This document shows positions 5,929 to 12,519 of a DNA stretch of 64,000 nt, piece after piece. Location: NCBI RefSeq assembly GCF_002208115.1, contig NZ_CP020946.1, positions 3,472,001 through 3,536,000 of the forward strand, in the 5' to 3' direction. The notes beneath the pieces are model-generated. The model was not told the DNA's origin. It saw nothing but the letters and a program-made list of their open reading frames with translations, and did no database searches. Position numbers and translations under genes: made by a program. How positions within the stretch are numbered: position 1 is the stretch's first letter; the number at the start of each line of letters is the position of its first letter. The stretch is from Bdellovibrio bacteriovorus (GTDB lineage: Bacteria > Bdellovibrionota > Bdellovibrionia > Bdellovibrionales > Bdellovibrionaceae).

Positions 5929-6462
5929 ATGATGCACATGTCCTCGCTGAGGTCCTTGTTGCTTAACTCCAGCTACGAGCCGATGCAGATCGTAGGTTGG
6001 CAAAAGGCCTTGGTATTGTGGTTTCAGGGAAAAGTGGAGATATTGGAATATCACTCTGCGTTTGCCCGGTCGGTACAACGAAGGTTTCAGCTGCCCAGTG
6101 TTTTGCGGCTGAAGACTTATGTTCGACCCCGGACTGCCGGAGCCGTCCGATTCTGCCGGGAAAACGTTTATATCCGCGATAATTACACCTGCCAGTACTG
6201 CGGCACCAAACTCGCCGCCAAGTTACTCACTCTTGATCACGTTGTCCCCGCCTCACATAACGGTCCGAAAAACTGGACCAACGTTGTCGCCGCCTGCCGG
6301 GACTGCAATCAAAGAAAAGCGAATCGAACGCCCCGCACTGCCAATATGCCTTTACTGAGCGAGCCCCGTGCTCCATCATGGTTGCCGACACTGCAACTGG
6401 AGATCGGCGAGGATCATGTGCCTCCCGACTGGTCGCCCTATCTAAGGCTAAATACTGGATGA
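5929..6462 (+). CDS. HNH endonuclease family protein
   Basis: The 177-residue protein carries an HNH domain with zinc-binding pairs Cys88-x-x-Cys91 and Cys123-x-x-Cys126, the catalytic-type Asp103-His104 and Asn118. The N-terminal 80 residues (LLNSSYEPMQIVGWQKALVLWF) belong to the conserved COG1403-like form found as a stand-alone chromosomal gene in many bacteria, where its role is unknown. It is not linked to a restriction or phage module. Three ATG codons (5929, 5932, 5938) are possible starts; the purine-rich site favours the first two. Its stop overlaps the next gene by ATGA, making it the first gene of a four-gene operon. Confidence 0.88.
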   Translation: MMHMSSLRSLLLNSSYEPMQIVGWQKALVLWFQGKVEILEYHSAFARSVQRRFQLPSVLRLKTYVRPRTAGAVRFCRENVYIRDNYTCQYCGTKLAAKLLTLDHVVPASHNGPKNWTNVVAACRDCNQRKANRTPRTANMPLLSEPRAPSWLPTLQLEIGEDHVPPDWSPYLRLNTG

Positions 6463-6914
6463 CGACAGAGTACGAATTTAAAACCATCTCAACCACCGAC
6501 ACTCTTCCCATCCGTCAAAGAGTTCTTAAGCCTCACCTGCGCGCCGAAGAATGCGTGAATCCGGGAGACGACCTTCCGACCACGTTGCACTTCGGCCTGT
6601 TTATTTCCGGAAAACTTGTCTCGGTCGCGACTTTCATCCAGGAATCACACCCTGCATTTGCTGCCGGCCATCCGTATCGCCTGCGTGGCATGGCCACCGA
6701 TGACAGCTATCGCGGCCAGGGCCTGGGACAAAAGCTTGTGCGTTTTGGTGTTGAAGAACTAAAAAGCCGCCGTTGCGACCTTGTGTGGTTCAATGCGCGC
6801 ATCAAGGCTTTTTCATTCTATGAAAGACTTGGATTTTCATTCTATGGTCCGCTGTTTGATATCAAGGATATCGGGCCCCATAAAACCATGTACAAGCATC
6901 TTATTCCCCGTTAA
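6459..6914 (+). CDS. GNAT family N-acetyltransferase
   Basis: The protein has 151 residues. The acetyl-CoA binding motif A is visible as RGMATDDSYRGQGLGQKLV (about residues 75-93), followed by motif B around FNARIKAFSFYERLGFSFYG. The acceptor substrate cannot be predicted. The start at 6459 is chosen because it forms an ATGA overlap with the HNH gene; a longer frame from 6378 would overlap the HNH gene deeply and lacks family similarity. A clear AGGAGG site for the following gene begins 13 bases after the stop, so the operon continues. Confidence 0.88.
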   Translation: MTTEYEFKTISTTDTLPIRQRVLKPHLRAEECVNPGDDLPTTLHFGLFISGKLVSVATFIQESHPAFAAGHPYRLRGMATDDSYRGQGLGQKLVRFGVEELKSRRCDLVWFNARIKAFSFYERLGFSFYGPLFDIKDIGPHKTMYKHLIPR

Positions 6915-6936
6915 CCTTTTCTCTTAGGAGGAATCG

Positions 6937-8580
6937 GTGAATAAGGATGTTCACAATCAGCTGACCTCAGCACTGACCACCATCATCAGCGAAACCAACG
7001 GGATCTCACTTTCTGACACTGTTGATCTGCTTTTGTCTTCAAAACTTAAAACAGAGAATCTGGATGCCTACGGCCTGGTGGTCGAGTTCCGTGATTTACT
7101 GAATCGTTTTCAGATCAATCAAGTGACGATTTCATCGCTGCTAAAGCACCCGGTGTCCGCCGCCTTGTTTGAGTTCTTCAAAAACTTCCCGCTGAAATAC
7201 AACGAAGAACACATTCACCTGACCGGCGCGATCACCGCAGAATTCATCTATCCCAGACTGAAAAAACTGCTGGAAGGCCCCGACAAAGACATCTATGAAC
7301 AAAAGATCAAAGAAGTCTATGGCGACAAAGCCCTGCCTATTCGTTCGGTTGAAGATGTCGACCGTCTGATCCGCCTGCAGGAAAATGAAGGCTTTTCGCG
7401 CTATCTGAAAATTCTGTATCTTCCAAAATTGATCTTCATCAATCGCGAAGTTCACAAGGAAGCGGCCTATTCCATGGCCGAAGAGCTGTACTATAAATTC
7501 AACGTCGGCCGTGTACGTTTGAAATTCTCGCTGTCCCGTTCGACGGCAAGCTCCTCCGAACAGATTCCGGGCATCGACAACGTGACCTCGGAAGACGTGG
7601 TGCTGGGCCTTTATGACGGTTTCCGTGCCTTCCAGGAAAAACATCCGAACTTTGATTTCATCCTGTCGCCGTCTTTCAGAAAAGAAGCCAACCACTTTGA
7701 TTCTGAAAAGTTCAAAAACCGCCAGGAACACTTCATGGAACAGATCAACGAACTGGTCGACATGATCGACAAGTATCCGTTCCTGGAGCGTCATTTGCGA
7801 GATGTCGACACCGTGGGTGATGAGCGCGAACTTTACCGTAAAGAGCATTTCAACGAAATGCAGGCCGGCTTCCGCAAACTTCAGTACCGTGGCTTTAAAA
7901 TCCGTTCGCACCATGGTGAAACCTGGCACACTCTGAAAAAGGGCATCCAGGCCGTCGACAATGCCATGAACATCTGGCACATCGACACCCTGGAACACGG
8001 GATCAGTCTGGGTATCAACCCAAACAAATACTTCCACCGGATTTATCAGGACATTCTGGCCAAAAACCAGCAAGGCCTGCCGATTTCTGAAAAAGATCCG
8101 TTGTATCGCGAACTGACCGAGCTGGATTGGGGCTTCAACCGTCACGTCCTGGATAAAATCCTGAAAGGGACCAAGATCACGGCGGAAGAGGACATTTTGT
8201 TTGTAAAAGCCAAGTTCCACACTGCCCGCGAAGTTGAGCACTATCAGCACGACGTTTTAAATCGCATGATTCAAAAAGGCGTGACCCTGGTGTCCCTGCC
8301 GTCCTCAAACAACAAGCTGACCGGCAAGTTTGAAGACTACAAGGACCATCCGTTTTCGTGGTGGGAGAAAAAAGGCGTGCAACTGGGCGTTGGCACCGAC
8401 AACCACGTGACATTGAACACGAACTTCATTTATGAAATGTTGATTCTTCTTTACACCGATGCGGTGAATTTGAAGATCACAAAACTATTGATGGTAACCA
8501 CCGGCGAAACCCGCCGTCCTTACATCAGCCATCTTCTGTGGAAGATGCGAAAGCAACTTGGAAAGACCGCGCACCGATGA
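6937..8580 (+). CDS. Adenosine deaminase superfamily protein, divergent and enlarged
   Basis: At 547 residues this is far longer than ordinary adenosine deaminase (about 340). Zinc-site motifs are in the expected order: HIHLTGA with His92 and His94, HHGE with His325 and Glu328, HG with His354, LPSSN with Ser457-Asn458, and GTDN with Asp488. In classical enzymes the last motif is DD, and the second Asp binds purine N7; here that position is Asn489, so the substrate may not be adenosine. Inserted regions lie between residues 105-300 and 360-440. The start is GTG after a perfect AGGAGG. It overlaps the AmpG-type gene by ATGA. Confidence 0.85.
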   Translation: MNKDVHNQLTSALTTIISETNGISLSDTVDLLLSSKLKTENLDAYGLVVEFRDLLNRFQINQVTISSLLKHPVSAALFEFFKNFPLKYNEEHIHLTGAITAEFIYPRLKKLLEGPDKDIYEQKIKEVYGDKALPIRSVEDVDRLIRLQENEGFSRYLKILYLPKLIFINREVHKEAAYSMAEELYYKFNVGRVRLKFSLSRSTASSSEQIPGIDNVTSEDVVLGLYDGFRAFQEKHPNFDFILSPSFRKEANHFDSEKFKNRQEHFMEQINELVDMIDKYPFLERHLRDVDTVGDERELYRKEHFNEMQAGFRKLQYRGFKIRSHHGETWHTLKKGIQAVDNAMNIWHIDTLEHGISLGINPNKYFHRIYQDILAKNQQGLPISEKDPLYRELTELDWGFNRHVLDKILKGTKITAEEDILFVKAKFHTAREVEHYQHDVLNRMIQKGVTLVSLPSSNNKLTGKFEDYKDHPFSWWEKKGVQLGVGTDNHVTLNTNFIYEMLILLYTDAVNLKITKLLMVTTGETRRPYISHLLWKMRKQLGKTAHR

Positions 8581-9917
8581 CGACTGCAAAAAAATCTCGC
8601 CGCCTTAGCTGGATGGACACTATCAAGTCCCTGGCTCGTCCCAAAGTTTCTATTATGCTGGCCCTGGGCTTTTCCTCAGGCCTGCCGTTTATGCTGGTCG
8701 GAAACACGCTGGGGTACTGGCTGCGTGAAAGCGGCATTGCGCTGGCGACCATCGGGTTTCTTTCCTGGGTGGGCCTTGCGTACTCGCTGAAGTTTGTCTG
8801 GGCACCCTTGATTGATAAAATGAATGCACCGATTTTCGGGGCTTGGCTGGGACGCCGTCGCGGCTGGATGATCATCTCGCAAATTCTGGTGGGGATCTGT
8901 CTGTTTGGCATGGCGTACGTCAAACCCGAAGGGGGCCTGGCCTTGTTCACGCTGTTGGCGGCGATAGCGGCCTTTGCTTCCGCCACCCAGGACATCGTGG
9001 TCGATGCGTGGAGGATTGAAGTTTCTGATGCCAGCGAAGACATGGCCTTGCTGTCGTCATCGTATCAACTGGGTTACCGCGCCTCTTTGCTGGTGACAGA
9101 TGCCTTGATTCTGATTCTGGCCGGTGCGATTGGCTGGTCGGTTTCTTATTCTGCCATGGGCGCTCTGATGGCCGTGGGTGTGATTGCGACATTGTTTGCC
9201 GCAGAACCCAAGCACGGACCGGCGAATGTGGCTGGTGCTGTGTCTTTGTGGTCTGCGCGAGGTTTGTTCGATGCCGTTGCTGGTCCGTTTATCTCTTTCT
9301 TCAAACAGCACGGTCAGCGCGCTTTATTGATTCTGGCGGCAGTGTGCCTGTATCGCCTGTCTGACTTTGTCATGGGTCCGATGGCAAATCCGTTCTATGC
9401 AGATCTGGGACTGAGCAAAGAAACTGTGGGCGCTGTTCGCGGGTCCGTCGGCTTGATCGCCTCGGTAGTGGGCGTGGCTGCGGCCGGCCTGACCGCCGTG
9501 CGTTTTGGCTTTATCTCGACGTTGCTTATTGGTGCGGTGATTGGTCCGGCTTCCAACCTTGGCTTCTCGGTTTTGGCGATGATGGGGCCAAGCACTGAAG
9601 TGTTTACAGGTGCCATGATCGTGGATAACTTTGCTACGGGCTTTGCAGGAACTGCGCTGGTTGGTTATATGTCCAGCCTGACAACGCTGGGGTACACGGC
9701 CACGCAGTATGCCCTGCTCAGCTCCTTCTATGCGTTGTTAGGAAAGGTGCTGAAAGGCTTCTCGGGACTTGCGGTTCAGAAACTTAGCGAAACCCATGCT
9801 CTGATGGAATCCTATGCACTCTTCTTCCTGGGAACGGCGCTGATCGGGGTTCCAGCACTGCTGTTATGCATCCTGCTGGTTCGCAGTAACACAAAACTAA
9901 AATCCAGTACCAACTAG
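8577..9917 (+). CDS. AmpG-type muropeptide permease (MFS)
   Basis: The 446-residue protein has about 12 predicted membrane helices and an N-terminal half typical of AmpG: ALGFSSGLPFMLVGNTLGYWLRESG, then FVWAPLIDK and SATQDIVVDAWRIE. AmpG imports GlcNAc-anhydro-muropeptides across the inner membrane for cell-wall recycling. The chosen start gives an ATGA overlap with the deaminase-fold gene; an in-frame ATG at 8538 would overlap by 43 bases. In a wall-degrading predator such uptake could also bring in prey wall fragments, but that is inference. A terminator follows directly. Confidence 0.88.
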   Translation: MTTAKKSRRLSWMDTIKSLARPKVSIMLALGFSSGLPFMLVGNTLGYWLRESGIALATIGFLSWVGLAYSLKFVWAPLIDKMNAPIFGAWLGRRRGWMIISQILVGICLFGMAYVKPEGGLALFTLLAAIAAFASATQDIVVDAWRIEVSDASEDMALLSSSYQLGYRASLLVTDALILILAGAIGWSVSYSAMGALMAVGVIATLFAAEPKHGPANVAGAVSLWSARGLFDAVAGPFISFFKQHGQRALLILAAVCLYRLSDFVMGPMANPFYADLGLSKETVGAVRGSVGLIASVVGVAAAGLTAVRFGFISTLLIGAVIGPASNLGFSVLAMMGPSTEVFTGAMIVDNFATGFAGTALVGYMSSLTTLGYTATQYALLSSFYALLGKVLKGFSGLAVQKLSETHALMESYALFFLGTALIGVPALLLCILLVRSNTKLKSSTN

Positions 9918-11409: not shown

Positions 11410-12519
11410 ATGTACTTACAAAACTTCCACTCCATTCAGCCTCCATATCAGAAAAACCAGAAGGAATGCCTTGAATGGCTTTCCGAAGCCCACAAGCTGG
11501 CACAGAAGAATCAGGGATACTCGCAAGAGGACTACCTGAAGATGCTGCAAAGGGTGGGCTGCCCGGAAACGCAGATTGAAAAAAGGTACTTTTTCATTCC
11601 CGACGTCGAACGCTCGAACTGGGACGACAAGCCGATTTATCCCGTCAAGGCCAATTCCCACGGCGTCAGCATGCACATGCGCCACGAGTACTATCACAAA
11701 ACCGTGAAAGAACTTTTTGAGCGCATCTATTCAGAGCGCGCGTTTCCCGATGATCTGATTCACGTCAGTTGCACGGGATATATCTCGCCAAGTGCGGCGC
11801 AGATGACGGCGGTGAAGTCGCCCAAACCGGTGACGGTGACTCACTCTTATCACATGGGTTGCTACGGCGCCTTCCCGGCTTTGCGCATGGCCTCGGGTTT
11901 TTTGGCGAATGAAAATATTCTTGGCAAAAAGCTGACCGTGGATCTGGTACACACTGAACTTTGCAGTCTGCATCTGAATCCGGAAGATCCGACGCTGGAA
12001 CAAATGGTGATTCAAAGTTTGTTCGCCGATGGATGTATCGCTTATTCGATGTCGACTCAGCAACCTCAGAAGGGGTTCAAGGTTCTGTCGTTATATGAAG
12101 AACTGATCCCCAACACCACCGCCGCCATGGAGTGGATGGTTTCGGACTGGGGCATGAAAATGAGCCTGTCCAAAGATGTGCCGATGATGGTGGGCGATAA
12201 GATTCGTGATTTCACCACACGATGGTTGAAAGAGCGCGGATACGATCTTGCCCACGTGGTTAAAAACGGCTTGTTCGCCGTTCACCCGGGCGGACCCAAA
12301 ATCATCGATCAGGTTGTGAAGCACCTGGAGCTGGATCAGTCTCAAGTGGCCCACAGCCGGGCCTTGCTGCGCCAGCGCGGGAACATGTCGTCGGCAACAC
12401 TTCCGCACCTGTGGGAGCAGATACTTCGCGACGACAGCGTGCCTTCCGGAACCCCCATCATCAGTTATGCTTTCGGTCCCGGTCTTACAGTGTGCGGAAG
12501 TTTGATGGAGAAGTTATGA
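11410..12519 (+). CDS. Type III polyketide synthase (chalcone/stilbene synthase family)
   Basis: The 369-residue enzyme retains the full type III PKS triad: Cys151 in HMGCYGAFPALRMA, His292 in FAVHPGGPKIID and Asn325 in RGNMSSATLPHLW, plus the C-terminal FGPGLTVCGSLMEK loop. Bacterial members condense malonyl-CoA with fatty acyl or aryl starters to give alkylresorcinols, alkylpyrones or tetrahydroxynaphthalene; the product here is unknown. The following membrane-protein gene overlaps by ATGA and presumably acts on the same product. The N-terminus is about 20 residues longer than many homologues. It may share transcription with ndh, 44 bases upstream. Confidence 0.93.
   Translation: MYLQNFHSIQPPYQKNQKECLEWLSEAHKLAQKNQGYSQEDYLKMLQRVGCPETQIEKRYFFIPDVERSNWDDKPIYPVKANSHGVSMHMRHEYYHKTVKELFERIYSERAFPDDLIHVSCTGYISPSAAQMTAVKSPKPVTVTHSYHMGCYGAFPALRMASGFLANENILGKKLTVDLVHTELCSLHLNPEDPTLEQMVIQSLFADGCIAYSMSTQQPQKGFKVLSLYEELIPNTTAAMEWMVSDWGMKMSLSKDVPMMVGDKIRDFTTRWLKERGYDLAHVVKNGLFAVHPGGPKIIDQVVKHLELDQSQVAHSRALLRQRGNMSSATLPHLWEQILRDDSVPSGTPIISYAFGPGLTVCGSLMEKL

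What the first reader, a model, noticed from the sequence alone, without database searches (positions are those of the whole stretch)
6937..8580. Deaminase-fold protein with the purine-binding aspartate replaced
All zinc-site residues of the adenosine deaminase superfamily are present, but the DD pair of known deaminases is DN here (Asp488-Asn489) and the protein is about 200 residues longer. Established knowledge links the second Asp to recognition of purine N7, so a different substrate is likely. Coupling to an AmpG-type permease raises the idea that it acts on an imported or prey-derived compound.
Basis: partly seen in the sequence, partly recalled or inferred. Interest (0 to 1): 0.5.

Follow-up and report, generated by a model that had tools for sequence, protein, structure and literature searches.

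The report
Predator-wide deaminase related to RADAR's RdrB
A gene kept by nearly all sampled members of two bacterial families that include predators encodes an adenosine-deaminase-like enzyme; the odd residue that drew attention is common in ordinary relatives, but the protein as a whole most resembles the ATP-deaminating part of an anti-phage defence system and probably acts on nucleotides.

Summary
The ORF at 6937-8580 encodes a 547-aa adenosine-deaminase-fold protein with the full zinc/catalytic set (H92, H94, H325, E328, H354, D488) and Asn489 where mouse ADA has Asp296. Asn489 is invariant in 110 of 110 aligned sequences. The inference drawn from Asn489 is weak. Asp-Asn also occurs in ordinary-length adenosine deaminases (20 of 52 loci read, a biased sample) and in the CRISPR ATP deaminase Cad1. 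More telling are Thr96 in place of the 5'-OH-binding Asp19 (109 of 110), invariant Lys196 and Arg201, a family-specific HHGE motif, and an enlarged loop plus insertion shared with RdrB, the ATP/dATP deaminase of RADAR defence. RdrB is the best PDB sequence-profile match (E 4.5e-5) and the sister group in a tree (99/95); alternatives are disfavoured but not rejected. The gene is in 50 of 51 genomes of the window's family, 18 of 19 sampled from a second family, and 0 of 57 from families outside these and the order. Best reading: a cytosolic, standalone deaminase of 5'-phosphorylated adenine nucleotides. The substrate is untested.

The parts
6926..6931 (+). Shine-Dalgarno AGGAGG before the GTG start
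   Evidence: read
6937..8580 (+). ADA-fold protein, 547 aa, probably cytosolic (no signal peptide seen by eye; no predictor was run)
7210..7227 (+). H92-I-H94-L-T96-G97: zinc ligands H92 and H94; Thr96 (109 of 110, Ser in 1) in the place of mouse ADA Asp19
7522..7539 (+). K196...R201, both 110 of 110, replacing the Glu and Pro of the ADA strand 'VEVRYSP'; candidate phosphate contacts (inferred)
7906..7920 (+). S324-H325-H326-G327-E328: zinc ligand and catalytic Glu; H326 is specific to this family (Ala, Val or Ser elsewhere)
7996..7998 (+). H354, equivalent of catalytic His238
8011..8247 (+). RdrB-like motif and insertion after H354 (G359 to Q437) before the next barrel strand
8398..8400 (+). 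D488, zinc ligand (mouse Asp295)
8401..8403 (+). N489 (mouse Asp296 position), 110 of 110
8577..9917 (+). AmpG-family MFS permease, start overlapping the deaminase stop (ATGA); a conserved neighbour in the window's family only

Best explanation
A standalone, chromosomal, metal-dependent deaminase of the ADA superfamily, sister to the RADAR deaminase RdrB. It most likely removes the 6-amino group from 5'-phosphorylated adenine nucleotides (AMP, ADP, ATP or their deoxy forms) in the predator's cytosol. By homology: a zinc ion held by H92, H94, H325 and D488 activates water, E328 and H354 shuttle protons, and N489 contacts the adenine ring, as Asn549 does in Cad1. By inference: replacing Asp19 with Thr96 removes the carboxylate that would repel a 5'-phosphate, and K196/R201 help hold the phosphate(s). 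Likely role: moving prey-derived adenine nucleotides into the inosine/guanine pool. Shown here: fold (predicted), conserved catalytic set, invariances, distribution, kinship signal. Not shown: activity, substrate, physiological role.
For: The catalytic set is invariant and the predicted fold is ADA. The A1 profile finds RdrB first in the PDB (E 4.5e-5), and hhalign ranks RdrB (5e-14) above ADA-DN (2e-12) and adenine-deaminase-like (1e-9) profiles. The tree puts the family with RdrB at 99/95. Six columns are shared by the family and RdrB against 0, 1 and 3 for three control groups; they share an enlarged loop after HxGE and an insertion after the catalytic His. The Asp19 position is Asp in ADA and Glu in adenine-deaminase-like rows, but non-acidic in RdrB (N/G/Y/S) and in Cad1 (G), both ATP deaminases (PMC9994260; PMC12669630), and non-acidic here. 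Cad1 needs Asn at the N7 position: N549D lost ATP activity. B. bacteriovorus 109J is reported to use mainly host nucleoside monophosphates (stated in PMC7529429, passages).
Against: No assay and no ligand-bound model. The tree joins long branches (2.46 for the family's stem), and grouping the family with Cad1, ADA-DN or ADGF-like rows is worse by only 10-13.5 log units (AU p 0.085, 0.063, 0.059). RdrB has DD, not DN. By Z-score the nearest structures are ADAL and ADA rather than RdrB (Z depends on length). The placement of K196/R201 at the phosphate rests on alignment, not coordinates. No phosphate-binding residues of RdrB or Cad1 could be compared. Non-acidic Asp19 positions also occur in rows of unknown substrate (S or G in 'oth' rows). 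No conserved neighbour points to nucleotide metabolism.
Confidence: 0.5

Rival explanations
1. It sanitises modified nucleotides from prey nucleic acid, such as N6-methyl-(d)AMP, like ADAL/MAPDA.
For: ADAL (8qch) heads the VIA list at Z 33.5, 333 residues, 3.0 A. That ADAL also lacks the acid at Asp19 is recalled, not tested. Predators digest Dam-methylated prey DNA (general knowledge).
Against: ADAL's lead is a tie within 1 Z of ADA; no sequence-profile hit to ADAL; the shared sequence features are with RdrB, though ADAL was not among the compared rows.
Confidence: 0.15
2. An unusual but ordinary adenosine (nucleoside) deaminase, redundant with the canonical one.
For: DN occurs in normal-length annotated ADAs. 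In 11 of 30 family-positive genomes of the overlap sample no other A_deaminase was found, so it could supply ADA activity there.
Against: It scores far under the cut-off of every NCBIfam ADA model it matches (best 28.7 against 216.55 bits); Asp19 is lost in 110 of 110; the window's genome has a separate canonical ADA-like gene (L001, 265 bits).
Confidence: 0.15
3. A non-purine amidohydrolase or deaminase (for example acting on an imported compound linked to AmpG).
For: HHGE, K196 and R201 are specific to the family among the rows compared; an AmpG-like gene is adjacent in the window's family.
Against: AmpG adjacency is absent in 51 of the 54 most divergent loci. HNH, GNAT and FKBP-type genes are conserved beside it as well, so this is general synteny.
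Confidence: 0.15

Closest known systems
RdrB, RADAR anti-phage ATP/dATP deaminase (PDB 8fnv, 8fnw, 8hr7)
   Same: ADA core; non-acidic Asp19 position; enlarged loop GE[TD][WF]..L..G; G359/Q437/W476-type columns; insertion after the catalytic His; best PDB profile hit
   Different: 547 aa against 799-912 in the 7 RdrB read here; DN against DD; no PADLOC RdrB match; no RdrA-like partner seen; conserved in a whole bacterial family
Cad1, CARF-fused ATP deaminase
   Same: Asn at the N7 position together with a non-acidic Asp19 position (Gly in Cad1)
   Different: no CARF domain found here; Cad1 (L183) has the short ADA loop and no insertion
Canonical adenosine deaminase
   Same: fold, zinc and catalytic residues
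   Different: Thr96 against Asp19; HHGE against HAGE; about 200 residues longer; far below NCBIfam cut-offs
ADAL/MAPDA N6-methyl-AMP deaminase
   Same: fold, Z 31-33.5
   Different: no profile sequence match; ADAL chains are 355-376 aa

Membership tests
ADA superfamily (Pfam PF00962) | score above the curated cut-off | tested here: met
   38.6 against 27 bits
ADA superfamily (Pfam PF00962) | HxH, HxGE, His238 and Asp295 equivalents | tested here: met
   110 of 110 at each
Canonical adenosine deaminase (TIGR01430 and PRK09358 models) | score above the equivalog cut-off | tested here: not met
   28.7 against 216.55 and 28.5 against 426 bits
Canonical adenosine deaminase (TIGR01430 and PRK09358 models) | Asp19 equivalent for the 5'-OH | tested here: not met
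   Thr in 109, Ser in 1 of 110
RADAR RdrB | match to PADLOC RdrB models | tested here: not met
   no family up to E 10, while the RdrB rows L117, L118 and L188 match
RADAR RdrB | adjacent RdrA AAA+ ATPase | tested here: inconclusive
   no RdrA-like family recognised among the neighbour clusters, of which only three were run against Pfam; an RdrA search of 39 genomes found nothing but had no positive control
RADAR RdrB | dodecameric shell | not testable with these tools
   no assembly prediction
RADAR RdrB | ATP/dATP deamination | not testable with these tools
   needs an assay
Cad1 (CARF-ADA) | CARF domain | tested here: not met
   no CARF match in Pfam or PADLOC; L183 as control matches CARF_ADA at 583 bits
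ADAL/MAPDA | N6-methyl-AMP deamination | not testable with these tools
   needs an assay

The most novel reading that the evidence does not exclude
Predatory Bdellovibrionota carry a core ATP/dATP deaminase that is the housekeeping sister of the RADAR effector RdrB: a growth-arresting defence chemistry run as ordinary metabolism (or aimed at prey nucleotides) in predators, with RdrB and this enzyme derived from a common nucleotide deaminase.
Probability: 0.25. Interest if true: 0.75.

Novelty: new variant of a known kind. Interest (0 to 1): 0.42.

Why it matters
If the enzyme deaminates adenine nucleotides, it gives a metabolic counterpart to the ATP-deaminating effectors of RADAR and type III CRISPR, and a candidate for how bacteria that live on prey nucleotides balance their purine pool. 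It also corrects a shortcut: Asn at the second Asp of the ADA motif does not by itself mark a new substrate.

Tried and rejected
Asn489 as a marker of a new substrate: rejected, because DN is common and is in Cad1. Asn489 as a marker of ATP specificity: also rejected, because RdrB is DD and ordinary ADAs are DN. AmpG as functional partner: judged lineage-specific. Other neighbours in the divergent loci (DsbA-like, a protein without Pfam match, MeaB) gave no common theme. Phage-defence label: no PADLOC match. Viral relatives: none confirmed in IMG/VR; one BFVD fold hit under E 0.001, weak. Plasmid relatives: none (best E 0.7). RdrA in 39 relatives: nothing, uninformative. TLC nucleotide transporter in the own genome: nothing rang, controls included, so uninformative. 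A Ham1-type ITP pyrophosphatase is present, but so it is in 14 of 14 controls. Profile comparisons with the ADGF-like, ADA_DN2 and L175/L176 sets returned only spurious short alignments, so they neither support nor exclude kinship.

Rows dropped: in the motif survey 2 of 54 loci gave no frame and 6 of 52 gave an unreadable, odd or clearly mis-picked motif. ADADN_L131 was read in a wrong frame (visible) and left out of the tree and column counts. The 110-sequence alignment holds near-duplicates (81 or 59 sequences remain at the two redundancy cuts tried) and the window's own copy. L177 (839 aa) is an outlier on a long branch. One of the 146 positive genomes (G076) is only a canonical ADA hit.

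Full report
Observation. The gene is real: 6937-8580, GTG start with AGGAGG at 6926-6931, 547 aa, Pfam A_deaminase 38.6 bits. I aligned 110 sequences: 30, one of them the window's own copy, and 80; there are near-duplicates among them. The residues H92, H94, H325, E328, H354, D488 and N489 never vary; 110 positions in all are invariant. AlphaFold2 on a 49-row alignment gives pLDDT 92.6. The predicted fold is ADA: VIA Z about 31-34 to mouse, human, plasmodial and bacterial ADA and to ADAL, 25-29 to Cad1, 26-27 to ADGF-type enzymes, 24 to RdrB. Ranks among the first are ties.

What Asn489 means. I read the motif in 54 loci: top A_deaminase matches in two phyla, ADA hits on plasmids, the window genome's own ADA and L116. 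Of 52 with a frame, 20 are HxHLD...DN, 24 HxH[LI]E...DD, 2 D...DD, and 6 were unreadable, odd or mis-picked. The sample is biased and gives no frequency, but it shows that DN is normal in one class of bacterial ADA, including genes annotated add in E. faecalis, Cetobacterium and Eubacterium eligens. I found no held paper that tests one of these enzymes; the class is called ADA by annotation. TaqCad1 also has Asn (549) there and Gly264 for Asp19; it converts ATP but not AMP or ADP, has little adenosine activity, and N549D lost ATP activity (PMC12669630, passages seen). The PDB alignments shown for four Cad1 chain sequences (two of them near-identical) have HLGG and NTDN. RdrB converts ATP and dATP but not AMP or adenosine (PMC9994260, passages seen); all 7 RdrB read here are DD. 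So Asn489 neither excludes adenine nor fixes the phosphate state.

What is more telling. The Asp19 equivalent is Thr96 (109 of 110; Ser in 1). In the aligned comparison set it is Asp in ADA rows, Glu in adenine-deaminase-like rows, and N, G, Y or S in RdrB; S and G also occur in other rows of unknown substrate. K196 and R201 (both 110 of 110) replace the Glu and Pro of the ADA strand VEVRYSP, and HHGE replaces HAGE. That K196 and R201 lie at the 5' side is inferred from alignment with ADA; I had no coordinates.

Kinship. The family profile searched against PDB sequences finds RdrB (E 4.5e-5), then nothing until E 0.81. Hhalign E-values are 5e-14 for RdrB, 2e-12 for ADA-DN, 1e-9 for adenine-deaminase-like; three smaller sets failed to align. 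In an IQ-TREE of 52 rows and 346 columns the family (12 rows) and RdrB (7 rows) form one side of a branch at 99/95. The family's stem is long (2.46), and the AU test does not reject grouping it with Cad1 (p 0.085), ADA-DN (0.063) or ADGF-like rows (0.059). Apart from the tree, six family-conserved columns are shared with at least 70% of RdrB rows and at most 4 others (R313, L333, G359, H428, Q437, W476); the same count is 1 for adenine-deaminase-like, 3 for ADA-DN and 0 for ADGF-like rows. For Cad1 only one row was available (6 columns), so that count is not comparable. Three of the six lie in the enlarged loop or insertion that the other rows mostly lack (gaps in 29-33 of 33). The labels ADGF-like and adenine-deaminase-like are mine, from motif and length.

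Distribution. In 290 genomes of the phylum 146 match (145 truly; G076 is an ADA hit). In the window's family 50 of 51 match. In the 97 genomes that share, counted by eye: window family 11 of 11, rest of its order 1 of 10, family f17 18 of 19, other families 0 of 57. Named loci place f17-like members among Bacteriovorax and Halobacteriovorax records (the link of f17 to these names is inferred). Both families contain known predators (general knowledge), but presence is by lineage and may reflect ancestry rather than predation. In 11 of the 30 positive genomes no other A_deaminase was found; the window's genome does have one (L001). In the phylum of G291 (titles say Acidobacteria) 4 of 247 genomes carry it and a fifth hit is a canonical ADA. 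Viral contigs and plasmids gave none.

Surroundings. Downstream is an AmpG-type permease whose ATG overlaps the deaminase stop. AmpG-like genes are present in 55 of 110 loci, 54 at +1, but in 3 of the 54 most divergent. HNH, GNAT and FKBP-type genes are conserved in the same loci (the FKBP name is mine, from the sequence). In divergent loci a DsbA-like gene is near upstream in 32 and MeaB downstream in 23. No partner is common to both halves.

Role. The metabolic model paper states that strain 109J mainly used host nucleoside monophosphates, and its passage appears to list histidine among required supplies (PMC7529429, passages seen). An enzyme that converts adenine to inosine nucleotides would fit such a diet. 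This is inference. Searches for print on a Bdellovibrio adenosine deaminase or an RdrB-like protein there found nothing relevant in the listings.

Verdict. The protein is a distinct, strongly conserved branch of the ADA superfamily closest to RdrB on present evidence, and most likely a nucleotide deaminase.

Noticed in passing
11410-12519 (+): Type III polyketide synthase-like protein (Chal_sti_synt_C 4.9e-21; DpgA model 92 bits, below cut-off).
   Followed up: no
6378-6914 and 5929-6462 (+): A GNAT acetyltransferase frame overlaps the end of an HNH endonuclease frame; both are conserved upstream of the deaminase in the window's family.
   Followed up: partly
L177 938-3451: 837-aa protein of a f17 genome with an ADA-like domain (HSHFGG) that has ATDGHG in place of DD/DN, flanked by other sequence.
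   Followed up: no
L172: A DN-type ADA domain in an open frame of about 970-1010 aa, seen in several genomes of the same phylum.
   Followed up: no
L046, L101: Family members at 71% and 60% identity in records titled Streptomyces griseus and Candidatus Kerfeldbacteria; probably mislabelled or contaminated bins.
   Followed up: no
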